Shown here in pieces: positions 143 to 18,241 of a DNA stretch of 64,000 nt. A model generated the notes under the pieces. The model was not told where the DNA came from and did no database searches. It saw only the letters and a list, made by a program, of their open reading frames with translations. Source of the stretch: Deltaproteobacteria bacterium. GTDB taxonomy: Bacteria > Desulfobacterota > Binatia > UBA1149 > JAJCZL01. How positions within the stretch are numbered: position 1 is the stretch's first letter; the number at the start of each line of letters is the position of its first letter. Made by a program: the position numbers and the translations under genes. The stretch spans positions 62,001 through 126,000 of the forward strand of contig JAJCZL010000057.1 of assembly GCA_029262415.1 (NCBI GenBank), read 5' to 3'.

Positions 143-1027
143 ATGATCTCCACAGACGAGCGATACACGAAGAGCACCGCCACCGTCAACGGCAAGAAGA
201 TGGCCTACGTTGAGACCGGCCAGGGCGACCCGATCGTATTTCTGCACGGCAACCCGACCTCTTCGTATCTGTGGCGCAACATCATTCCGTACCTCGAAGG
301 CCAAGCGCGCTGCATCGCCCCCGACCTGATCGGAATGGGTGACTCAGAGAAGCTCGACGACCCCGGCCCCGACTCGTATCGCTTCGTCGAGCATCGCCGA
401 TACCTGCACACGCTTCTCGACCAACTCGGCGTCGGCAAAGACGCAACCTTCGTCATCCACGACTGGGGTTCGGCGCTCGGTTTCGATTGGATCAACTCAA
501 ACCCCGGCAAAGCCAAAGGCGTCGCCTACATGGAGGCCATTGTTCAGACGTTAACGTGGGAGGACTGGCCACCACCGGTTAAACCGGTGTTCCAAGGCTT
601 CCGCTCGCCGGCCGGCGACGAGATGATTTTACAGGGCAACGTGTTCGTCGAACAGGTGCTCCCCGGCGCAGTGCTGCGCGGGCTGACCGACGAGGAGATG
701 GCCGTGTATCGAAGGCCGTTCACCGCGCCTGGCGAAAGTCGCCGCCCTACGCTTACCTGGCCGCGGCAGCTCCCGATCGAGGGCGAACCCGCCGATGTCA
801 CCAAGATCGTCGAAGAATACGGAGCCTGTATGGCGCAGGCAGCCGACCTGCCCAAGCTGTTCATCAACGCAGATCCCGGCGCTATCCTGCGCGGTAAGGC
901 ACGTGAGTTCTGCCGGAGCTGGCCGAATCAGCAAGAGATCACCGTCAAGGGCTCGCATTTCATCCAAGAAGACTCCCCCGACGAGATCGGCGCAGCGATC
1001 AGCGCTTGGTACAACAAACTAGGCTGA
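143..1027 (+). CDS. haloalkane dehalogenase (HLD-II/DhaA-like alpha/beta hydrolase)
   Basis: [13 protein letters not shown] (halide-binding Asn), nucleophile context HDWGSALGF, catalytic acid context [15 protein letters not shown], catalytic His context [15 protein letters not shown]; matches the DhaA family layout. Confidence 0.9.
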
Positions 1028-1059
1028 CGCCGCAGGGCATTGCCGCTAGTCTAAGGGTC

Positions 1060-1911
1060 GTGACCGAGAGCGAATCCGAGCATACGCATTTGGCGACTTT
1101 CGATGCCGGCGGCGTCGAGATCTCATACCGCAGCCGCGGACGCCGCGAAGACCCGGCCGTGACCCTGATGCACGGCTTCACCGGCAACGTCCGTAACTTC
1201 AACTTCAATTTCAACGCTATTGGGGATGCCGGATTTCGCGTGTTGGCTTCGGACCATCCGGGTCACGGGCGCTCGGGAGCACCAGACGATCCCTCTTTCT
1301 ACCAAATGCCCGCTCTCGCGCGGATCCAGCGCGACCTGGCCGAGCACACCGGGTTCACACCGACAGTGCTGGTCGGCCACTCGATGGGCGCGGCTGTAGC
1401 CGAGGAGTTTGCTATTGCCTATCCGGAGCAGGTACGCGCGTTGGTTTTGGTCGACAGTGCCGGCGGTAGCTACAAGGAGTCTTGGCGCAAGACTCTGGAG
1501 ATATACTGCGAAGACGAACCACGCCGCGTCGCTTTCGATCACGGAATGAAGGCGTTGTTTGACTACCAGATCGAACGTGGCTGGCGGCAGCTGGATCACC
1601 TCCCCGAGGAGATCCAGATACTCGCACGCGATGAGTTCGCCCGCACCTCGGCGGTCGGCTACTTCCACGCCGCGGGCGGGCTGATCTCCCGCCGATCTAC
1701 GCTCGACGCGCTACGCAGCTTCGATAAGCCCGCGCTGGTTGTGCACGGCGAGAACGAAGACCGTGGCTTTGTTAAGGGCTCGCAGGAACTGGCCGCGGCT
1801 CTACCCAACGCCCGCCTCAAGGTGGTCGCCGGCGCGGGGCACAGCCCGCCGTTCGAAGCGCCGCTTGCGTTCAATGAACTGCTGATAAGCTTTCTGAACG
1901 GGCTCGACTGA
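1060..1911 (+). CDS. alpha/beta hydrolase
   Basis: HGFTGN oxyanion region, GHSMGAA nucleophile elbow, GAGHSPPFEAP His; probable GTG start at 1060 inside the 1006-1911 ORF. Confidence 0.85.
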   Translation: MTESESEHTHLATFDAGGVEISYRSRGRREDPAVTLMHGFTGNVRNFNFNFNAIGDAGFRVLASDHPGHGRSGAPDDPSFYQMPALARIQRDLAEHTGFTPTVLVGHSMGAAVAEEFAIAYPEQVRALVLVDSAGGSYKESWRKTLEIYCEDEPRRVAFDHGMKALFDYQIERGWRQLDHLPEEIQILARDEFARTSAVGYFHAAGGLISRRSTLDALRSFDKPALVVHGENEDRGFVKGSQELAAALPNARLKVVAGAGHSPPFEAPLAFNELLISFLNGLD

Positions 1912-1938: not shown

Positions 1939-2838
1939 CTAGGGCCGCTCCGCGGTGACCAGCCAGCACGACGAATCCATGAGTACACCCTGCGGCGTCG
2001 CGAACGGTTCGAGCGCTTCACGCACCGCAGTTCGGACTTTGTCGCGAGTAGCATCGTCCACGTCAGGCAACACGCGCGCCACCGGTCCGAGCTGCAACAT
2101 AAACTCGGCGGTACGTTCGGCGTCGCCGCCGTCACCGAGCGTCATCACTTGGTCGAACGATGTCAGCGCCATATTTTTGAAGCCCGATTGTTCGAGGATG
2201 CCGGCGACTCTCTCGTTATCTGCAAATGCGAATGGTCCGGGTGCCTCCGGATCCGGCGGGGCCTGCATGGACACGTGTTGCGCGGCCGCGGCGACCGGCA
2301 CCAACATCCAGGGGTTGCGCATTAGTTCACGCCAACAGATGAACGAAACTCGACCACCCGGGCGCAGCGCAGCAGCAAGATTGCTGAACGCGGCGACCGG
2401 ATCGGAGAAAAACATCACACCAAAGCGCGAGAAAACGCCGTCGAATGACGACTCCTCGAAGACGTACGACTGCGCGTCGGCGTGCAGAAATTCGGCGTTG
2501 CCGATCGCCGCGGTCTGCGCACGGCGCCGCGCGATCTCGAGCATCGGAGAGGAAATATCGACACCGATAACCGTGCCGCCTGAGCCTACGTGCTTGGCCA
2601 ACTCGATGCTCGTGGTTCCACAACCGCACCCAACGTCGAGCAGGCGCTCGCCGGGACGCGGAATCAACGCCCGCATTGCTACGTCACCGAAAGGGGCAAG
2701 CTGAAAATCGAGCTCTTGCTGGTAGGCGACCCAACGGTCGCCTGCGGCCACGTTCCAGAACTCGATCTGTTCAGAATTCGCCTCAGTAGGCTGCGCGGGC
2801 TGCGGCCGTTGTGACAACGGCGTAGGGGTATCACTCAT
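1939..2838 (-). CDS. class I SAM-dependent methyltransferase
   Basis: LLDVGCGCGTTSIELA motif I, FDGVFSRFGVMFF, LRPGGRVSFICW. Confidence 0.85.
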   Translation of the reverse strand: MSDTPTPLSQRPQPAQPTEANSEQIEFWNVAAGDRWVAYQQELDFQLAPFGDVAMRALIPRPGERLLDVGCGCGTTSIELAKHVGSGGTVIGVDISSPMLEIARRRAQTAAIGNAEFLHADAQSYVFEESSFDGVFSRFGVMFFSDPVAAFSNLAAALRPGGRVSFICWRELMRNPWMLVPVAAAAQHVSMQAPPDPEAPGPFAFADNERVAGILEQSGFKNMALTSFDQVMTLGDGGDAERTAEFMLQLGPVARVLPDVDDATRDKVRTAVREALEPFATPQGVLMDSSCWLVTAERP

Positions 2839-2921: not shown

Positions 2922-4868
2922 CTATTGCGAAGCCGATTCGATCGGCCGCTCCAGCATCTCCAGGGCTGCAGCGATAGCACCGTGGGGGCCGTAGATCACC
3001 ACCAGGTCGCCGGCCAGGAGGGTGGTGCCGCCATCGGGGCTAGCGACCGGTTGTTGGTCACGAACCAGGCTCAGAATACTCGCGCCGGTTGCCCTGCGCA
3101 GGTCGAGTTCGGCCAGTGTCTTGTCGCAAGCCTCACTTCCGGCCATCACCTCGGCGGTCTCCAGGACACCGCCGCGTATCAACTCCTCGATCTCGGGCAA
3201 AAGGTCGGTCGATGTGCGCGAGCCGCGCAACGCACGGTAATGACCGAGCCGAATGATCGATTCTTGCAGCCGCGAAACATGGCGCGGAACTCCGAGATGG
3301 GTAAGCAGGCGCGAGAACAACTCGATTGAAGCTTCGAACTCCGCCGGGATAACCTCGTCGGCACCGAGACGCTCCAATTCCGCGATATCCTCGACCCCTT
3401 GCGCGCGCACCAGAATCCGTGTGGTCGAGTTCAGCTGGCGCATAAGCGACACGATTCGTCTCGTCTGACGCGCGTCACTAACAGCAACGACTGCCGCACG
3501 GCACTTGCCGATCCCCGCCGACTGCAACACCGCGCGTCGCGAAGCGTCACCGAAGTGGACCGGTAGCCCCTCGCGCCTTGCAAGCCGGACACGGTCAGGG
3601 CTCATGTCCAAGGCGGCGAACGGGATACTCGTCTCGCGTAGTACCCGCGTGACCGCCTGCCCGGTCTCTCCGTAACCGATCACCAGAACATGATCGACGA
3701 GGCTGCCCGTGTCCTCCGATTTGGAGTGATCTTTATCGGCGAACCTCTCGGCCCACGACAAGAGGTACGGCGTCGCCGCCATACTCAAAATCGCGGCACC
3801 GAGGAACGCCTGCTCGAGTTTCGGCGAGAGCAACCCGAGATTGACTGCTTCGCGGCTGAGAACGAACGAGAACTCTCCGATCTGCGCAAGCGCGAAACCG
3901 GTGACAACACCGAGCGGAATCGATCGCCAGGCGAATCCGAGCACCACCCCGCATAACACTCCCTTGACGGCGACCGCTAAGACCATCAATACGACGAGTT
4001 CGGGTTCCTCGAACAACACGACAGGTTGGAACAACATGCCGACGCTGGTGAAAAACACCGCTATGAAAGCATCGCGCAGCGGCAAGACCTCGGCAAACAC
4101 CTGATGCGCGTAGGGACTGCCGGAGAGCGCGAGACCTGCGAGAAACGCCCCGATCGGCAAAGACAGCCCCACATAGCTTGCACCGAGAGCGGTGCCGAAC
4201 GCGATCAAGACGGCAACCGGGGGGAACAGCTCCGGTGCCTGCGCAGTCGCAACCAGCTTGAGCACCCGCGGATACAACGCGCGCGCGAGCACCATGATTG
4301 CGGCCACCGCTACACCGGCGCGCGCGAAAGCCATGAGGCTCGCGGACAACGCACCCTCGCCGGGCGCCACGAGCACCGGCAGCAAGAGCATCATCGGCAA
4401 CAGCGTAAGATCTTGAAACAACAGAACGCCGGTGGCGGCCTGTCCGTGCGGCGCGTGGAGCTCGCCCTTGTCTTGGTAGAGCTTGAAGACCACCGCTGTG
4501 CTGGACAGCGAAACCAGGAAACCCACCACAATCGCCGTAGCCCACTCAGTCCCGAGCGCCGCGAACGCAACCGCTGTAACCGCTACTGTCAGGACAACCT
4601 GCGCAAGCCCGGTAGTGACCAGCCGCGTAAGACTCTTGCGTAGGCGGTCAAGTGAGAACTCGATACCGATGCCGAACAAAAGGAGCGCCACACCGAGGTC
4701 GGCAATCTGCTCGATCGCCTCCAATTCGCTGATACCGCGCAACAGCATCGGGCCGGCCAATACACCCGCAAGCAGATAGGCGACCATTGGCGGAATGCGG
4801 ACGACGCGCCCTAAAAGAATTCCGACGCAGGCGACTGCAAGGAGAAGAACAAGGTCGGTAAGCGGCAC
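2922..4868 (-). CDS. CPA2-type monovalent cation:proton antiporter with RCK (TrkA-N/TrkA-C) domains
   Basis: N-terminal multi-TM domain, then HVLVIGYGETGQAVTRVL (TrkA-N) and a C-terminal TrkA-C-like segment. Confidence 0.88.
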   Translation of the reverse strand: MPLTDLVLLLAVACVGILLGRVVRIPPMVAYLLAGVLAGPMLLRGISELEAIEQIADLGVALLLFGIGIEFSLDRLRKSLTRLVTTGLAQVVLTVAVTAVAFAALGTEWATAIVVGFLVSLSSTAVVFKLYQDKGELHAPHGQAATGVLLFQDLTLLPMMLLLPVLVAPGEGALSASLMAFARAGVAVAAIMVLARALYPRVLKLVATAQAPELFPPVAVLIAFGTALGASYVGLSLPIGAFLAGLALSGSPYAHQVFAEVLPLRDAFIAVFFTSVGMLFQPVVLFEEPELVVLMVLAVAVKGVLCGVVLGFAWRSIPLGVVTGFALAQIGEFSFVLSREAVNLGLLSPKLEQAFLGAAILSMAATPYLLSWAERFADKDHSKSEDTGSLVDHVLVIGYGETGQAVTRVLRETSIPFAALDMSPDRVRLARREGLPVHFGDASRRAVLQSAGIGKCRAAVVAVSDARQTRRIVSLMRQLNSTTRILVRAQGVEDIAELERLGADEVIPAEFEASIELFSRLLTHLGVPRHVSRLQESIIRLGHYRALRGSRTSTDLLPEIEELIRGGVLETAEVMAGSEACDKTLAELDLRRATGASILSLVRDQQPVASPDGGTTLLAGDLVVIYGPHGAIAAALEMLERPIESASQ

Positions 4869-6785: not shown

Positions 6786-7958
6786 ATGCGCGATATAAGC
6801 TACGTCATATGGGCTTCCGGGCTCTCTCCGTTCGCGCTGAAAACCCGCGCACTGTTCCAATACAGCGGGATTCCATACAAGTGGCACCCCGCCGAGGGGT
6901 CACTTAGCGAACGTCTGCGAGGGCTTCGACGCGTCGACGCCATCAAACGCGGCCGACTGCCGATCCATTCACCGGATGTAGACGACGACCTCGACGAGTT
7001 GCCGCTGGTGCCGTTTGTGTTCAGCGATGACGGGACCAACCTGTGTGATTCCTCTGCGATCGCGCAGTGGTGCGACACGCAGGCTCATAGGGACATCGAG
7101 CCACTGTTCCCGACGGGCGAAATCGAACACATGGCCGCCCGGCTCATCGACGAGTACTTTGATGAGTTCGGCCTGTATATGGCGCACCACAACCGCTGGG
7201 TTACCTCGGCCCACGACAACGACGCCGGCCGACGTCTCGCACGCGAGATGATCCCAGTCACGCTCGCCCCACTGCGCCCGATCTTGGCGTCTCGATTCAG
7301 CGCACGCCAGGTGCGTCGCTTGCCGTACCTGTTCAGCAACGGGAACCCGTCCAGCCAATACCAAGGACTCTCGCCTGCGCGTCGCCCACCCGCAATCGAA
7401 GGGTTCCCACCTACGCACGCGTTGCTCGACGAGGCTTTCTTAAAGATGCTCGAACGCGTTGAGCTGGTCTTGTCCGACCAGGCCTATTTGCTCGGGGAGC
7501 GGTTCACAATCGCGGACGCGAGCGCCTACGGGCAACTGGCGATGAACCTCGACGATCCCGCGCCTTGCCGGATCATCGAGCTACGCGCACCCCTGACCTA
7601 TGCCTGGTTGCGCAGGATCCAGGCCGGTGAACACCAATCCACGCGGAAAGCCTCCGGTTCTGCACGGCTGGAGGTAAGCCCTCGTCTGAGCTACCTTTTA
7701 GAGGAAATTCGCCGGACCTTTGTGCCGTTGATGCGGCAAAACGAAGCAGCCTACGAGAAGTTTTACGCCCGCGGTGTAAAGATGTTCAACGAGGCGGCGT
7801 TCGGGCGGGGGGTTGCGCTGTATGACGGCGAGATCGACGGTCGGCCGTTTCGAAGCGTAGCCAAATCGTTCCAGGTTAAGGTTTGGCGGCGGATCAAACG
7901 CGAATGGAGCCATCTGAGCAAACCCAACCGGGCGAAGCTGCCGGATGTCGAGTCGTAG
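6786..7958 (+). CDS. glutathione S-transferase-family protein
   Basis: Thioredoxin-like N-terminus (SPFALKTRALFQYSGIPYKW, DSSAIAQWCDTQ) and helical GST-C region (LGERFTIADASAYGQL). Confidence 0.75.
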   Translation: MRDISYVIWASGLSPFALKTRALFQYSGIPYKWHPAEGSLSERLRGLRRVDAIKRGRLPIHSPDVDDDLDELPLVPFVFSDDGTNLCDSSAIAQWCDTQAHRDIEPLFPTGEIEHMAARLIDEYFDEFGLYMAHHNRWVTSAHDNDAGRRLAREMIPVTLAPLRPILASRFSARQVRRLPYLFSNGNPSSQYQGLSPARRPPAIEGFPPTHALLDEAFLKMLERVELVLSDQAYLLGERFTIADASAYGQLAMNLDDPAPCRIIELRAPLTYAWLRRIQAGEHQSTRKASGSARLEVSPRLSYLLEEIRRTFVPLMRQNEAAYEKFYARGVKMFNEAAFGRGVALYDGEIDGRPFRSVAKSFQVKVWRRIKREWSHLSKPNRAKLPDVES

Positions 7959-8752: not shown

Positions 8753-8833
8753 CAAAAGCCTGCAGATTTTCCGCGCCGAGCGACAGGCGGGTTTGGACAC
8801 GCAGCGCACCCACCTCGCCTACAATGGGAGGTC

Positions 8834-11299
8834 ATGCTGGCCGAACGCTACACCGCGGGACTCGCAGATGCTGTGCGCGGAAAGTGCCTTGGACTTCGTC
8901 TACGACGCGAATTTCAGGGCGGGACCATCCGTAACCTCGCGTGCGAACTCTCCAACACATCCGCGACTGGTGCGTCGCAACTACCCGCCGAGACATTTTT
9001 CGAGGCCTCATACCCGACAGGCACCATTCTGCAGGGCCTCGAGGCACTCGCAGCCGGACACGGCCGGCCGATTATCCTGACCGGTCGTGCTGGATCGGGA
9101 AAGTCACACGCCCTTGGCGTCTTCCATCATGCACTGTCTGAGCCCGAAACGGCGCAAGAGTGGTTAGAGACCTGGAGCCGCCGTCTCGGCCACGCGCTTC
9201 CCGCACGGTTTCCCGAACACGCCAACCTGCAAGTCCTCAGCGAGAACCTTGATGGCTCGGTTTACCAGGTCTTATGGGACTACGTCCTGAACTGGCACTT
9301 TCGTGGTGAGTGGGGACGTGCCCAATCCGAAGAGCAGGGTCGCATACTCTACGAGGTTCCTGCACGCGAGATATTCGAAGAGATGTTCCGGCTGCAACCG
9401 GCAGTGTTCCTATTTGACGGCTTCGAGCGTTGGCTCGCGAACCTACCCGACAGCGAAGAACAGCCGTTTCGAACCAGATCGTGGCAGTTGGTGCAACTCC
9501 TTGCGGAAATCGCGAAGGACTACCCTAACCGCATCGCCATGGTGTTCTCGATCGACGACAAACGCTCCGACGCGTTCGAAAAACTCGAGTTCTTGTCGCC
9601 CCGTATCATCGACACCGAGTTGCCCTCAGCGCGTGGCGAACGCGCCCATTGGCTGGTACACCGGATGTTCGAGAATCGTTGGGAGATCGCCGAGTGCTCG
9701 ATTCGCGCACAGCTCGAACCGTACGTCGAACAGTACGTCGATACCTACGACACCCCGGTCGGCGTTCGACCCACGCTCTGGCGGGCGTTTCTTGACGCAT
9801 GGCCCTTCGTGCCCGGACTCGTCCGGCTTATCGAAGACCGGATCGATGTCGACGACCCCGCACAGAGTGCGCGGGTAACAGTCAAACTCCTCGCCGATCT
9901 ATTCGAGCGCCAACCGCGCCGCACGCGGGTGATCAACGTCTCCGACATCGGTTTGAACGACGACGACGAAGGAATAGCCCTTTGGCTGGGCGCGGCGATG
10001 AATGAAGAAGGCGCGTTGCTACGCGAACGCGCGATCGAGAATCTTACCCAGGTCTTCGACGCGGTCGGGAGAACCAAGTCGACGATCCCTCACGCCGCCG
10101 CGATCATGAGCGCACTCTGGGTGCGATCGGTAACTCCGCGCGACGGCGACGACGACTCGGGTAGCGACCTGCGCTCTCTATTGCTCGACATTACCCACGG
10201 CGAAAAGATCGGTGTCGTCGCGCTTGAAACCGAGCTTGCGACTATTCGTAACCTCAGCCTGTTCGTCCACGAGGACAACGGTCGCTACCGTATTTGCGAC
10301 ACTCCGAACCCGCGCAACCGGCTGCTGATCGAAGCCCATGACAACACGAACTTCAAAGACGGTTCGGATCAGCGCGAACTCGCCAATCAGATCCGTCACG
10401 TCATCGGCGCACGCGAAGACGTTGCACACTCATTCCGGCTGGTCGTCCTCCGCCGTCACTGGCAGGTGGCGCCGTGGCGCGAAATGGACGAAGAATGCCG
10501 GCCACCGGCTTGGGACGGGAGAATCGTTTTGCTGGTCGTTCCCGAAGCACCCCATCATATCGAGTCCACACTCGGCCGCTGGTTGCGCGATCACGTACCG
10601 AACCGGCGCAACACCATTCGGTTTCTCCTTCCGAGCGAGGGATCGGGTAACGTCTACGAGGATCCGGAACTCTTACTGCCGATTCGCGGAATGCTACTCG
10701 CCGACAGGTGGGAAACCGAGGATCCTGCCTACCTCGACCACTACGCCGAGTTTCAAGCACGTGCACGCGAGCTGATCCGCAAGCGGTTCGACCGCTTCGC
10801 AGTCGTCGATATCTGGGACGACGAGGACGCACGACGATCGCGTTTCCACGTCGTTAAGCACGAGTCAGAAGGCGCAGGCATCCCCGACGCTGTCGATGCG
10901 TATATCCGCCAGAACCTAGTCAAGCCGGGATGCTTCGACGAAATGCTACTGGAGTTCGCGCATGCCAACGAAACGGTAGGTGCGGTACTGGCTGCTCTGC
11001 AGGAACCGCGACCCAACCGCAAGTTAACGATCCCGTGGATCGGCCACAGTTCGATCATCAAGAAGTTGGAGAAACTCTGTGCGGAGGGCCGTATCACTTT
11101 GGACATCAGCAGCACACGTAGCGGAGACAGAGGAAACGACCCCAGATCGCACCAATCGACCGCAAGCGACCGGCTCGCGCGAACCATCACGTCGGATGAG
11201 GAAGCTGAGCAGGTCCGCCTATCGTTGCCGGGGGATTCTCCGAGCGTGGATAGGTCGGCAGGCGGCGGTGCAGGCGGCACCGGCAAAGTATCCAAGTAG
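8834..11299 (+). CDS. large P-loop ATPase, DUF499/PglY-like
   Basis: N-terminal FFEASYPTGTILQGLEAL then Walker A GRAGSGKS; Walker-B-like VFLFDGFERWL; FSIDDKR sensor-like strand; Gly/Ser-rich C-terminal tail. Family assignment is by motif architecture only. Confidence 0.6.
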   Translation: MLAERYTAGLADAVRGKCLGLRLRREFQGGTIRNLACELSNTSATGASQLPAETFFEASYPTGTILQGLEALAAGHGRPIILTGRAGSGKSHALGVFHHALSEPETAQEWLETWSRRLGHALPARFPEHANLQVLSENLDGSVYQVLWDYVLNWHFRGEWGRAQSEEQGRILYEVPAREIFEEMFRLQPAVFLFDGFERWLANLPDSEEQPFRTRSWQLVQLLAEIAKDYPNRIAMVFSIDDKRSDAFEKLEFLSPRIIDTELPSARGERAHWLVHRMFENRWEIAECSIRAQLEPYVEQYVDTYDTPVGVRPTLWRAFLDAWPFVPGLVRLIEDRIDVDDPAQSARVTVKLLADLFERQPRRTRVINVSDIGLNDDDEGIALWLGAAMNEEGALLRERAIENLTQVFDAVGRTKSTIPHAAAIMSALWVRSVTPRDGDDDSGSDLRSLLLDITHGEKIGVVALETELATIRNLSLFVHEDNGRYRICDTPNPRNRLLIEAHDNTNFKDGSDQRELANQIRHVIGAREDVAHSFRLVVLRRHWQVAPWREMDEECRPPAWDGRIVLLVVPEAPHHIESTLGRWLRDHVPNRRNTIRFLLPSEGSGNVYEDPELLLPIRGMLLADRWETEDPAYLDHYAEFQARARELIRKRFDRFAVVDIWDDEDARRSRFHVVKHESEGAGIPDAVDAYIRQNLVKPGCFDEMLLEFAHANETVGAVLAALQEPRPNRKLTIPWIGHSSIIKKLEKLCAEGRITLDISSTRSGDRGNDPRSHQSTASDRLARTITSDEEAEQVRLSLPGDSPSVDRSAGGGAGGTGKVSK

Positions 11300-11407: not shown

Positions 11408-12202
11408 CTAGCCCGCCTGGTCCGGAGGTACCAGAGCTTGCGCGCGCACGGGCATGAGCAATGCAGCCGCCACACCGGGGGCTTTGACGGTGCCGGGTAG
11501 GCCCACGCGGTACCCCTCTTTCGCGGGGCCAGGCCCAAAAGTCCCGAAAAGTCTGTCCCACAGGCTGAAGATCGTCCCAAAATTCGAATTCAGCTCCCGG
11601 GTACGGGCAACGTGGTGGCGTCGGTGAAGCGAGGGCACGATGAAAACGGCCCCCGCGACGCGCTCAATCGTGCGGCCTTCGCCGATATCGGCGTGCTCGA
11701 AATAGTTAAAGCCGTTGAATATGGCTTCGAACATGACGACCGCGTGGGCCGGCGCGCCGAGCAAAACGATAGCGGTCAACCGCAATGGAAAGGACAGCAA
11801 CAACTCCCCTGGGTGAAAGCGCGCCGCCGTCGAAACCGTCAGCGCGGTATCGCTGTGGTGAACTTGGTGAAAGCGCCACAACACACCAACGCGATGGTTT
11901 ACCCGGTGCCACCAGTACGAAACCAAATCCAGGCCTGCGACCGTTACCGGGAACGACAGCACTGCCGGGGCATCGACCAAATTGAAAAGTCCAATGTTCG
12001 CTTCACGCGCACGCTGCGAAGCCCAAACCATGCATAACCCGCAAGCGAGCGCGGTCACCACCCCACCCGCAACGAATAGCGCCGTGTTAACACGTACGTT
12101 TCCCGGGCGACGCGAAAATGGAAACAAGCGCTGCAGGATCCAGGCAACCGCCACGACCGTGGCTAAGCTGAGCAGACGAAGCGTACGTGGGTCGTCGCTC
12201 AT
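11408..12202 (-). CDS. sterol desaturase / fatty acid hydroxylase superfamily membrane protein
   Basis: Histidine boxes HRVNH, HQVHH, HRRHH with TM segments; start at 12202 overlaps the upstream stop by 1 nt. Confidence 0.85.
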   Translation of the reverse strand: MSDDPRTLRLLSLATVVAVAWILQRLFPFSRRPGNVRVNTALFVAGGVVTALACGLCMVWASQRAREANIGLFNLVDAPAVLSFPVTVAGLDLVSYWWHRVNHRVGVLWRFHQVHHSDTALTVSTAARFHPGELLLSFPLRLTAIVLLGAPAHAVVMFEAIFNGFNYFEHADIGEGRTIERVAGAVFIVPSLHRRHHVARTRELNSNFGTIFSLWDRLFGTFGPGPAKEGYRVGLPGTVKAPGVAAALLMPVRAQALVPPDQAG

Positions 12203-13143
12203 CACTTGCGCGCGAGCAGTCTGCCCAAAGCGGCCCTTTCTTCGGGAGACGACGGGACCTCCTGCAACGCTTCGATCGGCCGGAGCTTGGCTAGAAGCCC
12301 CTCGCCGTCGGCAAGTTGGATGTTCAACCCCGGACGTGCGTTCAACTCGAGGACCAGCGGGCCGAGGTCGCGATCCAGGACGATGTCGCAGCCGAGGTAT
12401 CCGAGTCCGACCAAGTCGTAACAACGCGCACCGAGTTCACACAGGCGATCCCAGTGCGGGATCACGGTACCCGCGAGCGGTGAGCCGGTGTCTGGGTGGT
12501 GGTCAACGATCTTGTCTCGCCAGACTCCGGAGACCGTGGTTCCCGTAACGAGATCCACTCCGACTCCAACCGCCCCCTGGTGGAGGTTAGCCTTGCCGTC
12601 CGACATCCGCGTCGGCAGTCGAACCATCGCCGCAACGGGCACGCCCCTGAATACGATCATGCGGATGTCGGGAACACCCCGATAGCTCAGCTTCTCGAAT
12701 AGCCGATCGAACTTGACGCGGTACTCAATCATCGCGATGTCCGGCTTGCCGCCAAGGCTGTGCATACCGCTCAGGATGTTCGAGACGTGGTGCGAAACCT
12801 CGGCGATGGTCAAGACGTTGCCGCTGCTTAGCCGAAAGCGATCGCGGGCACGGCCGGTAACAACCAAAACGCCTTTACCTCCGCTGCCCTGAGCGGGCTT
12901 GATCACGAAGTCTTCTTCGTCGCCGATCAACTCGAGTAGGTCGCGTACCTGGTGCTGAATCTCGACGACCGCGTACAACTTGGGGACCGCAATCCCCGCA
13001 CGCACCGCGAGTTGTTTAGTCAACAGCTTGTTGTCAACGAGCGGATACAAACGACGCGGGTTGTACTTCTGGATGAAGTCGCCATTGCGGCGGTTCATGC
13101 CAAGCAAGCCGTAGCGGTGCAATGCTCCGGGGCCGGCGATCAT
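12202..13143 (-). CDS. RimK-like alpha-L-glutamate ligase homolog (ATP-grasp)
   Basis: GLLGMNRRNGDFIQKYNPRRLYPLVDNKLLTK start typical of the RimK-related family; FVIKPAQGSGGKGVLV ATP-grasp loop; VLELNARPGLNIQ; ATGA overlap with the upstream gene. Confidence 0.85.
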   Translation of the reverse strand: MIAGPGALHRYGLLGMNRRNGDFIQKYNPRRLYPLVDNKLLTKQLAVRAGIAVPKLYAVVEIQHQVRDLLELIGDEEDFVIKPAQGSGGKGVLVVTGRARDRFRLSSGNVLTIAEVSHHVSNILSGMHSLGGKPDIAMIEYRVKFDRLFEKLSYRGVPDIRMIVFRGVPVAAMVRLPTRMSDGKANLHQGAVGVGVDLVTGTTVSGVWRDKIVDHHPDTGSPLAGTVIPHWDRLCELGARCYDLVGLGYLGCDIVLDRDLGPLVLELNARPGLNIQLADGEGLLAKLRPIEALQEVPSSPEERAALGRLLARK

Positions 13144-14681
13144 CGTAGCCGTCTGTCCGCGAAGAGCACTGCGCGGAACCTCCAAAACTCCGACAAACGG
13201 TAGCCGGTGTAGCGACCCAGCAACAGCGTCGCAGCCAAAACAACAAGGAGCAATTCGGGGAATACGAACAGCAAATACGTGAGCTGCTTGGTACTCATCA
13301 AAACGTAGGCAAGGCTCGCAACAACCAGACTACCGGCACCTTGCTGCAACGCGTCCCGGGCACCGTTCTCTTCCCATACCACCGACATCCTTTCGATCGT
13401 CATTGCCAACACGACCATCGGAAACAGGGCGACCGATAACCCGCCCTGAAACCCAAGCTTGTGCGTCAATAATGTTACCGCAGCCATTAAGATAACGACG
13501 ATGATCAAGACCGCTGCCACGCGTGGGACGGCAAGCAAGTGCAGTGTCTCAAAGTAGAAGCGGATACTCAGCCCCAAAGCGACGATCAAACTGAACAGTA
13601 CGAGACCCGAGACCAGTTGCGTCTCGCGGAACGCCAACGCGATCAGAACCGGCATGAACGTGCCAAAGGTATGAAACCCAATGACGTTGCGCATGAACAC
13701 CACTAAGAACGCGCCGAGCGGTATCGTCAGGAGGATCTTGTAAACGTTCTGAGTCCCGATCGGCAACCCAAACAGCGAGTATTCGAGGATCCGTGAGCCC
13801 TTCAAGCGCGCCCGTGTTTCCGCCACTGACACCACCGCACGGATGTCGCTCGCAATCGAGAAGTCAACCACCGCGGGTTCTCCACCCTTAACCCTCACCA
13901 ACGGATCGTTGCCGACACGCCAGACCAAGAAATGCGCGGGGTATCCGAGCTTGCCGGTCATCGGATCGAAAGCCATCCATTGGTTCTCATCGTGCACCTC
14001 GAGCCACGGCTGCAACGACGCCTCGCGAACACCATCCGAGAGCTTGAGACCGTACACGATGCGAGCGGGGATGCGGGCGCCGGCGAGTATGTCGACAATC
14101 TTGGCTACAAACTCATCCTTCGACTCCGTCGTGCCACGGATGAGCTGAACGCTTTCGTCACCACCCACCCCGTTCAGGGTCTTGATCAACTCGCGCGTGA
14201 ATGACGCGATATCGGCCGAGTGACCGCGCACCGCCTCAAGCAAGCTGTTGACCGCCGATTTGTACGGCTCCGGGTAGTCCGGCTTGTCCGGATACGGCGG
14301 CTGCGGCGCCGTCCAGGCTGCCGGCGGCTCGCTCTCCTGATGCAGTAAGGCGCGGTAGTACAGGACCTGTTGCCCCGACGCCTTGCGCACGGCCCACATT
14401 GAAACGCGGTTTTCACCGTTGTCTTCGGTCGAAGAACCGTAGTTGCTCGAAACAAAATCCTCGCCCAGCAACGCGAACCCGGGAGGGTTGCGAGGAATGT
14501 AGAACTCGACTTTCGCAGGGGTGTTCTTGCCCTTGAACGATAACCGCGCCTCGACAGTCCAAACCTCGGTCTTCTCCGTGGGGCTGAGCGGCAGGCCGAG
14601 TGCCGTCGTCTTGTAGAGGCAGAGTGAGAGTCCAATAGCACTCAGCACGAGCGCGAGGGTGCGGACCTGGAGGTCTTTCAT
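13140..14681 (-). CDS. inactive-transglutaminase-like domain fused to 7TM membrane domain
   Basis: N-terminal signal/TM, transglutaminase-like segment ARIPARIVYGL...SLQPWLEVHDENQWMAFDP without the catalytic Cys/His, then about seven TM helices. Confidence 0.82.
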   Translation of the reverse strand: MKDLQVRTLALVLSAIGLSLCLYKTTALGLPLSPTEKTEVWTVEARLSFKGKNTPAKVEFYIPRNPPGFALLGEDFVSSNYGSSTEDNGENRVSMWAVRKASGQQVLYYRALLHQESEPPAAWTAPQPPYPDKPDYPEPYKSAVNSLLEAVRGHSADIASFTRELIKTLNGVGGDESVQLIRGTTESKDEFVAKIVDILAGARIPARIVYGLKLSDGVREASLQPWLEVHDENQWMAFDPMTGKLGYPAHFLVWRVGNDPLVRVKGGEPAVVDFSIASDIRAVVSVAETRARLKGSRILEYSLFGLPIGTQNVYKILLTIPLGAFLVVFMRNVIGFHTFGTFMPVLIALAFRETQLVSGLVLFSLIVALGLSIRFYFETLHLLAVPRVAAVLIIVVILMAAVTLLTHKLGFQGGLSVALFPMVVLAMTIERMSVVWEENGARDALQQGAGSLVVASLAYVLMSTKQLTYLLFVFPELLLVVLAATLLLGRYTGYRLSEFWRFRAVLFADRRLR

Positions 14682-15745: not shown

Positions 15746-18241
15746 ATGGCTGACATCGAGAAACTCGGAGCATTCTACCTGGGGCGCCGCTACGACGTTG
15801 AAAAAGGCGAGGTGACCGACGAACCGGTGGTCTACGATGCAAAAGACCTGACCACCCACGCAGTCTGCGTCGGCATGACCGGCAGCGGAAAAACCGGCCT
15901 AGGCGTCGCCCTTCTCGAAGAAGCCGCAATCGACGGGATCCCGATCATCGCGATCGACCCTAAGGGCGACCTCGGCAGCCTCTTGCTCGCTTTCCCCGAT
16001 TTGAGCGCGGCGGATTTTCGCCCGTGGATCGACGAAAGCGAAGCCGCACGCAAAGGCCGTACTCCGGAAGAGCAGGCCGCTTGGACGGCCGATCTGTGGC
16101 GCGACGGCCTCGCAGATTGGGACCAGGGTCCGCAGCGGATTCGCCGCTATCGCGACAGCGTCGATGCCGCGATCTACACCCCGGGAAGCAGCGCAGGCCG
16201 CCCGCTGACGATTCTAAAATCCTTTAGTGCGCCACCCCCCGCTGTCGCCGAAGACCCTGAGGCACTCGCCGAACGCACCGAGTCTGCCGTGTCGGGCCTG
16301 CTCGGACTGCTTGGTATTCGCGCCGAGCCGCTGCGCAGCCGCGAACACATCCTGCTCTCCAACATCATCAACACCGCGTGGCGCGAGGGCCGCGACCTCG
16401 ACCTGCCGAGCTTGATTCGCGAGATACAAGAACCGCCGTTCGAGCGTGTCGGCGTGATCGATCTCGAATCCTTCTATCCCTCTGCCGAACGCTTCGAACT
16501 CTCGATGTCGCTCAACAATCTGCTCGCCTCACCGGGCTTTGCGGCCTGGACCCAAGGCGAACCCCTCGACATCGGCAAGCTCTTGTACACCAGCGAGGGC
16601 AAGCCGCGCTTGTCGATTATCTCGATTGCCCACCTTTCCGAGAGCGAAAGGATGTTCTTCGTCACGCTGCTGCTCGGCGAGGTGTTGTCGTGGGTAAGGT
16701 CACAGCCCGGCACACGCAGCCTGCGCGCCATCCTCTATATGGACGAGGTCTTTGGCTACTTTCCGCCCTCAGCAAACCCGCCGTCAAAAAAACCGATGCT
16801 CACGTTGCTCAAGCAGGCGCGTGCGTTCGGACTCGGTTGCGTCTTGGCGACACAAAACCCCGTCGATCTCGACTACAAGGGTCTGTCCAACGCAGGCACA
16901 TGGTTCCTCGGACGCCTGCAAACCGAGCGTGACAAAGCCCGCGTGATCGAAGGTCTCGAAGGCGCATCGGCCGGCGCAGGCTTGGATCGCGCCACAATGG
17001 AAAGAATACTCTCGGGCCTGGATAGCCGGGTTTTCCTCATGAACAACGTCCACGAGGACGGCCCGGTGGTGATGCACACGCGATGGGTCTTGTCCTACCT
17101 GGCCGGACCGATGACGCGATCGCAAATCAAAACACTCACCGACCAACGCGGACGCGGCGGTGAAGCCGATGCCGGCAGACAACCCTTGGAGGCCGCCAAG
17201 CCTAGGCGTGAAGAGGCGGCGACAAGACCCAAAGCAGGCACCGCAAAGCGCCCCGCAGATGCCGCGCGCGGGTCGGGCGACGAGGATAGCGAACGCCCAA
17301 TGGTGCCACCGGATATCGAAGAGGTCTTTCTTCCTGTCACCAAACCGGCAGGGCCGCGCTCGGCACTTTTGTACCGCCCGACGCTGCTCGCAACCGCGAC
17401 TCTTCACTACACGAACACGAGTGCGAAGGTTGACCAGTGGCGGACCGAGTCGTTTCTCCTCCCTGTCGATGCCGCCACTGACGGTCCCGATTGGGACGCG
17501 TTGCGCGGACTCGGAAAAGGCAAGACCACCGCGTTCGACGAGCCTTCAACCGGTGCGCGCTTCGGTGCCTTGCCCGGCACGGCGGCCCGCGCAAAAGAAC
17601 ACACGCGGTGGAGAAAAATGCTCGCGAGCCGCCTATACCGCGAACACAAACTGCGTTTGTGGCACTGCAAGGAGCTCAAGCTCTACTCGCAGCCCGGCGA
17701 GAGCGAACGAGAGTTTCGCGGCCGCCTGCGTGAGGTCGCGCGCGAAGCCCGCGATCTGGAAGTAGAGAAGCTGCGCGATAAGTACGCGCCGAAGTTGGCG
17801 AGGATCAAAGATCAAATCCGTCGCGCAGACGACCGCGTCGAACGCGAGCAAGAACAGTACAAACAACAAAAGATTCAGACCGCCATCTCGGTCGGCACGA
17901 CGGTTTTGGGTGTGTTGTTCGGACGTAAACTCGGTACCGCCACCAATGTCGGGCGCGCCGGCACCGCGATGCGCGGCGCCGGGCGTGCAGCGCGCGAACG
18001 TGGAGACATTGGACGCGCCGCGGAAAGCCTCGAAGCTTCGCAAGAAAAGTTGGAGGCGTTAGAGAGAGAACTCGTCGAGCGCCTCGAAGAAATTCGTGAA
18101 GAATACGAACCCGATGCGCTCGAGGCACAAGAGATCGCCATAACGGCAAAGAAGACGGAAATCGCTATTGACAGGTTCGCACTCGCCTGGGCACCGTGGA
18201 ACCTGGATCCAGACGGGGTTGCCGAACCTGCGTTCGGTTAG
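15746..18241 (+). CDS. HerA-like P-loop ATPase with C-terminal coiled coil
   Basis: GMTGSGKTGLGVALLEEA Walker A, ILYMDEVFGYFP Walker B, LATQNPVDLDYKGLSNAGTWFLGRLQTERDKARVIEGL (HerA/VirB4-like), coiled coils flanking a Gly-rich hydrophobic segment. Confidence 0.82.
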   Translation: MADIEKLGAFYLGRRYDVEKGEVTDEPVVYDAKDLTTHAVCVGMTGSGKTGLGVALLEEAAIDGIPIIAIDPKGDLGSLLLAFPDLSAADFRPWIDESEAARKGRTPEEQAAWTADLWRDGLADWDQGPQRIRRYRDSVDAAIYTPGSSAGRPLTILKSFSAPPPAVAEDPEALAERTESAVSGLLGLLGIRAEPLRSREHILLSNIINTAWREGRDLDLPSLIREIQEPPFERVGVIDLESFYPSAERFELSMSLNNLLASPGFAAWTQGEPLDIGKLLYTSEGKPRLSIISIAHLSESERMFFVTLLLGEVLSWVRSQPGTRSLRAILYMDEVFGYFPPSANPPSKKPMLTLLKQARAFGLGCVLATQNPVDLDYKGLSNAGTWFLGRLQTERDKARVIEGLEGASAGAGLDRATMERILSGLDSRVFLMNNVHEDGPVVMHTRWVLSYLAGPMTRSQIKTLTDQRGRGGEADAGRQPLEAAKPRREEAATRPKAGTAKRPADAARGSGDEDSERPMVPPDIEEVFLPVTKPAGPRSALLYRPTLLATATLHYTNTSAKVDQWRTESFLLPVDAATDGPDWDALRGLGKGKTTAFDEPSTGARFGALPGTAARAKEHTRWRKMLASRLYREHKLRLWHCKELKLYSQPGESEREFRGRLREVAREARDLEVEKLRDKYAPKLARIKDQIRRADDRVEREQEQYKQQKIQTAISVGTTVLGVLFGRKLGTATNVGRAGTAMRGAGRAARERGDIGRAAESLEASQEKLEALERELVERLEEIREEYEPDALEAQEIAITAKKTEIAIDRFALAWAPWNLDPDGVAEPAFG

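What the first reader, a model, noticed from the sequence alone, without database searches (positions are those of the whole stretch)
8834..11299. Orphan DUF499/PglY-like large ATPase with an altered Walker B and no visible defence partners
Seen: an FFEASYPTGTILQGLEAL segment precedes Walker A GRAGSGKS. This layout recalls the DUF499 / BREX PglY-type ATPases, where an FF..TYPT-like helix precedes the P-loop. The Walker-B-like strand reads VFLFDGFERWL, with Gly where those families usually have the catalytic Glu. A Gly/Ser-rich tail ends the protein. No PglZ, PglX, DUF1156-type methylase, helicase or nuclease lies next to it; flanking genes are PlsC and a fatty-acid hydroxylase. Inference: a stand-alone, repurposed or minimal member of this ATPase group.
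Basis: partly seen in the sequence, partly recalled or inferred. Interest (0 to 1): 0.62.

Follow-up and report, generated by a model that had tools for sequence, protein, structure and literature searches.

The report
Stand-alone relative of a phage-defence ATPase
This gene encodes an ATP-binding protein of a kind that normally works inside a five-gene phage-defence cluster, but in this bacterial family it has been inherited alone, with none of its partners and with parts of its ATP-burning machinery altered, which suggests that it has been put to a new use.

Summary
Window 8834-11299 encodes an intact 821-aa protein with Walker A GRAGSGKS, a preceding FF..YPTG segment, a Walker B reading VFLFDGFE, and a Gly-rich tail. 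It is homologous over nearly its whole length (about 35% identity) to DUF499 ATPases of "Type-3 BREX-related" defence operons (ATPase, PglZ, N6-methyltransferase, iSTAND, Snf2 helicase). Its AlphaFold model finds solved BrxC structures first. In 79 of 80 relatives fetched from genome contigs PglZ accompanies the ATPase; in the 80th the contig ends first. More distant operonic relatives also carry the operon. Only the window protein and one homologue from another genus of the same family are orphans. The two form one long-branched clade (100/99) and share gene order with five neighbours, so the gene is vertically inherited. PglZ and the methyltransferase are absent from the whole genome. Both orphans lost residues that operonic ATPases keep, mostly in the AAA+ half, including a likely arginine finger, yet retain the alpha+beta domain implicated in DNA binding. 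The window copy also lost the catalytic Glu and the C-terminal RRM domain. Best reading: a repurposed, ATP-gated DNA-binding protein. Function untested.

The parts
8834..11299 (+). Orphan DUF499 / BR Type-3-like BrxC-family ATPase, 821 aa
   Evidence: ORF and RBS; about 35% identity over residues 18-805 to operonic DUF499 ATPases; fold match to BrxC 9zll/9zdx
8826..8831 (+). Shine-Dalgarno-like GGGAGG before ATG 8834
   Evidence: sequence
8996..9022 (+). FFEASYPTG segment (residues 55-63) before the P-loop; Y60 and P61 are invariant in alignment A3
   Evidence: alignment A3
9083..9106 (+). Walker A GRAGSGKS (residues 84-91), intact
9404..9427 (+). Walker B VFLFDGFE (residues 191-198): catalytic Glu replaced by Gly196, Gln198 replaced by Glu
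   Evidence: operonic relatives have E196 and Q198 in 83 of 83; the other orphan (G001) has DEYD
9581..9592 (+). Residues 250-253: invariant Q250 and R253 (candidate arginine finger, placed by spacing to BrxC K326) replaced by K and F
   Evidence: kept in all 86 operonic ATPases, lost in both orphans; BrxC arginine fingers from PMC13326643
10415..10861 (+). alpha+beta domain (residues 528-676, approximate), best-retained part (27 of 30 invariant residues)
   Evidence: model pLDDT mostly above 90; the equivalent region contributes to DNA binding in BrxC (PMC13326643)
11114..11296 (+). Mostly low-confidence tail with Gly-rich end; the RRM-like domain that follows the linker in relatives is absent, with no remnant downstream
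143..1027 (+). alpha/beta hydrolase, conserved neighbour (75% identical in G001)
1006..1911 (+). alpha/beta hydrolase, conserved neighbour (49%)
1939..2838 (-). SAM methyltransferase (ubiE-like, not a DNA methylase), conserved neighbour (47%)
2922..4868 (-). KefB-like cation/proton antiporter, conserved neighbour (63%)
6786..7958 (+). GST-domain protein, conserved neighbour (55%)

Best explanation
The gene encodes a former component of a Type-3 BREX-related (DUF499) defence system that lost its operon in the ancestor of this bacterial family and was kept as a stand-alone gene. Shown: homology, BrxC-like fold, absence of PglZ and the methyltransferase from the genome, conserved synteny indicating vertical inheritance, an intact reading frame, and preferential loss of AAA+ residues against retention of the alpha+beta domain. 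Inferred: the protein binds ATP through the intact P-loop but hydrolyses it slowly or not at all, no longer assembles with PglZ/iSTAND or into the usual ATP-bridged oligomer, and uses ATP binding as a switch for DNA binding through its alpha+beta and winged-helix domains. It would then act as a solitary DNA-binding switch, for example a regulator or a simple sensor, and not as the motor of a restriction complex.
For: About 35% identity over nearly the whole length to operonic DUF499 ATPases. The nearest relatives pass Pfam's DUF499 cut-off. The PDB fold search ranks BrxC first (E=1.5e-6). In 79 of 80 relatives from genome contigs PglZ accompanies the ATPase; the exception is a contig end. Distant operonic relatives G392, G175 and G517 also have all five genes. 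The genome lacks PglZ and the MTase, while the same PglZ query finds all five operonic control genomes. The orphans are one clade at 100/99 inside the Type-3 group, with five syntenic neighbour genes. Retention of BR-invariant residues, Walker B to lid: 35/71 and 34/71 in the orphans against 54-56/71 in comparably remote operonic members (p=0.0002-0.002); alpha+beta domain: 27/30 and 29/30 against 27/30. In BrxC, a Walker B E-to-Q mutant keeps ATP-dependent DNA binding and forms more ATP-dependent dimer (PMC13326643).
Against: Only two orphan proteins are known here, 35% identical to each other. They differ: G001 keeps the Walker B Glu and the RRM domain, so those two losses are not shared properties of the orphan lineage. 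The arginine-finger assignment rests on spacing and conservation, not on a structural superposition. No function, expression or DNA binding has been measured. The orphans are slightly more diverged overall (34-36% against 39-41%), which could inflate the contrast. Both orphan branches are long, so fast evolution under relaxed constraint remains possible.
Confidence: 0.5

Rival explanations
1. Relic: the defence operon was lost and the ATPase gene remains without function, decaying slowly; the Glu-to-Gly change and the loss of the RRM domain are early decay.
For: Catalytic Glu, a candidate arginine finger and the C-terminal domain are lost in the window copy; both orphans sit on very long branches.
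Against: Two genera keep open frames of 821 and 938 codons although the proteins are only 35% identical. The other frames show 15-21 stops, so an open frame by chance has a probability of about 1e-7 or less. The alpha+beta domain is retained as well as in operonic members. A good ribosome-binding site is present.
Confidence: 0.2
2. Still a defence protein: it acts alone, or in trans with unlinked genes (for example a methyltransferase or Snf2 protein elsewhere), as a reduced BREX-related system.
For: The whole family is defence-related. G001 has a DUF1156-type methyltransferase-like gene on another contig (28% identity), and both genomes encode Snf2-type proteins. BrxC E268Q of E. fergusonii still allows phage restriction (PMC13326643).
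Against: No PglZ in either genome and no such methyltransferase in the window's genome. The Snf2 matches are weak and lie on another contig or far away. The neighbours are metabolic genes, and the locus is vertically inherited, unlike most defence islands.
Confidence: 0.25
3. Assembly or binning artefact: partners are missing because of a contig break or contamination.
For: The genome is a draft of 83 contigs, and G001 has 9% contamination.
Against: The gene sits far inside a 177-kb contig, with composition matching its neighbours. The same neighbours flank the orphan in an independent genome. The genome is 96.8% complete.
Confidence: 0.02

Closest known systems
DUF499 ATPase of Type-3 BREX-related (BR) systems (PMC12839542)
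   Same: Homologous over nearly the whole length (about 35%); same order of AAA+, winged-helix and alpha+beta domains; falls inside the Type-3 group in a rooted tree.
   Different: No PglZ, methyltransferase, iSTAND or Snf2 gene beside it; Walker B Glu and C-terminal RRM missing; invariant AAA+ residues Q198, Q250 and R253 changed; vertically inherited next to metabolic genes.
BrxC / PglY of BREX
   Same: Best solved-structure match of the model (9zll, 9zdx); P-loop AAA+ plus winged helix plus alpha+beta.
   Different: Only 12-13% identity; shorter, without BrxC's C-terminal extension; no BREX genes around it; the BrxC profile barely responds (E=0.044).
HmaC, DUF499 ATPase of the Hma system (BR Type-1)
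   Same: Same superfamily; an operonic relative matches PADLOC's HmaC weakly (E=1e-4).
   Different: The orphan itself has no HmaC match; no HmaA or HmaB partner beside it; more distant DUF499-like proteins used as outgroup fall outside its clade.
NACHT/STAND ATPases (for example NOD2)
   Same: Walker B of the form DGF followed by an acidic residue (NOD2 LLTFDGFDEFK; window VFLFDGFERWL).
   Different: A local resemblance in one motif; only a sub-threshold Pfam NACHT match around the P-loop; the overall fold is BrxC-like.

Membership tests
DUF499 ATPase family (Pfam PF04465) | Direct match to the DUF499 profile above Pfam's cut-off | tested here: not met
   No DUF499 match for the window protein; nearest relatives L003 and L005 pass the cut-off (24.0 and 27.9 bits against 23)
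DUF499 ATPase family (Pfam PF04465) | Near full-length homology and clade membership with proteins that match DUF499 | tested here: met
   tblastn and blastp E down to 1e-177 over residues 18-819; within the Type-3 clade
DUF499 ATPase family (Pfam PF04465) | Architecture of AAA+, wHTH, alpha+beta, wHTH | tested here: met
   Model of mean pLDDT 84.7 and its secondary structure; PDB matches to BrxC; domain borders are approximate
DUF499 ATPase family (Pfam PF04465) | C-terminal RRM/ferredoxin-like domain | tested here: not met
   Absent in the window protein, no remnant downstream; present in the other orphan G001
Type-3 BR defence system | PglZ gene in the locus | tested here: not met
   None in the window or the genome; controls found in 5 of 5 operonic genomes
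Type-3 BR defence system | DUF1156-type N6-methyltransferase | tested here: not met
   None in the genome
Type-3 BR defence system | iSTAND and BrxHII-like Snf2 helicase in the locus | tested here: not met
   None in the window; the genome has only weak Snf2 matches on another contig; iSTAND was not searched genome-wide
BrxC / BREX | BrxC/DUF6079 profile match and BREX genes | tested here: not met
   BrxC E=0.044 over 38 residues only; no DUF6079 match
Canonical active AAA+ ATPase | Walker A lysine and Walker B Asp-Glu | tested here: not met
   Walker A intact, Walker B Asp-Gly; activity itself not measurable here
Type-3 BR defence system | Protection against phage | not testable with these tools
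   needs a phage-plating experiment

The most novel reading that the evidence does not exclude
A BrxC-type defence ATPase has been domesticated in one bacterial family as a solitary ATP-locked DNA-binding protein with a cellular role, which would be the first described stand-alone, vertically inherited member of the DUF499/BrxC group.
Probability: 0.35. Interest if true: 0.7.

Novelty: new variant of a known kind. Interest (0 to 1): 0.47.

Why it matters
BREX and its relatives are multi-subunit systems whose ATPase role is still being worked out. A natural version that has shed every partner, the catalytic Glu and the C-terminal domain, while keeping the P-loop and the alpha+beta domain, separates what the ATPase can do alone from what it needs the complex for. 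It is also a clean case of a defence gene changing from a mobile, horizontally spread context to a vertically inherited chromosomal gene.

Tried and rejected
Pfam, NCBIfam and PADLOC scans of the protein gave only sub-threshold P-loop matches. Phage genomes and viral contigs gave no relatives. The first genome-contig scan with the single sequence found nothing, and an alignment was needed. The sequence search of solved structures found no relative, so the fold search was needed. ARMADA was considered, because its papers list BrxHII-like and PglX-like genes, and rejected: it is centred on a YprA helicase and has no DUF499 ATPase among its listed components. A frameshifted C-terminal RRM just downstream was looked for and not found. 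The GST gene occurs in many class members, but the ones inspected have it in other contexts without the ATPase, so the block is specific to this family among the genomes held. The viral fold library gave only generic AAA+ matches.

Full report
Observation. The ORF at 8834-11299 (+) is real and encodes 821 aa. A GGGAGG ribosome-binding site lies a few bases before the ATG. GC3 is 0.695 against 0.64-0.77 for neighbours, and the other five frames contain 15-21 stops. The motifs are as described: FFEASYPTG at residues 55-63, GRAGSGKS at 84-91, VFLFDGFE at 191-198, and a Gly-rich end.

Family. Direct profile scans are nearly silent: AAA_16 below its cut-off, NACHT below its cut-off, BrxC at E=0.044. 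Homology searches are not silent. tblastn against plasmids finds proteins annotated DUF499 at 34-35% identity over up to 96% of the length, E about 1e-150. Two of these relatives score above Pfam's DUF499 cut-off. The AlphaFold2 model built on an alignment of 50 sequences has mean pLDDT 84.7, and its best PDB matches are Acinetobacter BrxC (9zll, 9zdx), followed by ORC/Cdc6.

Normal context. PMC12839542 describes DUF499 ATPases as the core of "BREX-related" systems. Its Type-3 has ATPase, PglZ, N6-methyltransferase, iSTAND and Snf2 helicase. The plasmid relatives and the genome-contig relatives match this; I assigned the ~330-aa and ~165-aa genes to PglZ and iSTAND from position, size and weak PglZ profile matches. 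In 79 of 80 fetched loci a PglZ gene accompanies the ATPase; the exception, L084, ends at the contig edge. The remaining partners follow in nearly all loci where the contig and the fetched flank reach. Even three remote members at 39-41% identity to the rest carry all five genes.

The orphan state. In the window none of the partners is present. In the whole genome (96.8% complete) there is no PglZ and no such methyltransferase; the PglZ query finds all five operonic control genomes. Snf2-type matches exist but are weak and on another contig. The iSTAND partner was not searched genome-wide. One other genome of the same family, from a different genus (G001), has a 938-aa homologue, also without partners beside it. 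Five neighbouring genes, two alpha/beta hydrolases, a ubiE-like methyltransferase, a KefB-like antiporter and a GST-domain protein, are shared in the same order and orientation (names). This indicates vertical inheritance. In a rooted tree the orphans form a clade (100/99) inside the Type-3 group. The program warns that two long branches meet there, but synteny supports the grouping independently.

What changed. Among columns at least 97% conserved in 83 operonic ATPases, I compared retention in the two orphans with three operonic members of comparable remoteness. From Walker B to the lid, the orphans keep 35/71 and 34/71, against 56, 56 and 54 of 71 (p=0.0002-0.002 in pairwise tests). In the alpha+beta domain all keep 27-29 of 30. 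Twenty-seven residues conserved in the operonic set and kept by the three remote members are lost in both orphans, including Q198 next to Walker B, Q250 and R253. R253 lies 57 residues after the Walker B Glu position, the same spacing as the BrxC arginine-finger residue K326 (PMC13326643); the assignment is an inference. The window protein alone has also lost the Walker B Glu and the C-terminal RRM, both kept in G001.

Mechanism. [quoted passage not shown] that mutation also strengthens the ATP-dependent dimer (PMC13326643). The window protein resembles a natural version of that mutant that has also lost its C-terminal domain. I therefore favour an ATP-binding, poorly hydrolysing, DNA-binding switch working without PglZ or iSTAND. 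A caveat on "dead ATPase": NOD2 has DGFDE at this site (PMC4906405), and the window has DGFER, so residual hydrolysis by another geometry is possible.

Selection. Neutral decay is unlikely, because two frames of 821 and 938 codons stayed open through a divergence that left 35% identity. Without close orthologues a formal test was not possible.

Novelty. The searched literature (six papers mention DUF499) did not show stand-alone members; the main paper has no occurrence of 'orphan' or 'solo'. The library holds open-licence papers only, and not every paper was read. I rate this a new variant of a known kind.

Noticed in passing
L008:3530-4190 (G001 contig 78): AhpD-like ORF with an in-frame TGA at the second Cys of its CxxC motif (ECFY-TGA-TQSH), a candidate selenoprotein, between the GST genes and the orphan ATPase.
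   Followed up: partly
window 15746-18241: 831-aa HerA/DUF87-like ATPase, a few kb downstream of the orphan, also without an obvious nuclease partner.
   Followed up: no
window 12202-14681: ATP-grasp gene (ATPgrasp_ST) next to an inactive transglutaminase fused to seven membrane helices.
   Followed up: no
L005:14753-28212: Type-3 BR operon with inserted SIR2 and HerA-like genes on a conjugative IncN plasmid, next to Tn7-like TnsD/TnsE.
   Followed up: no
L141 (G001 contig 377): DUF1156-type methyltransferase-like ORF on a separate short contig of the other orphan-bearing genome (28% identity).
   Followed up: partly
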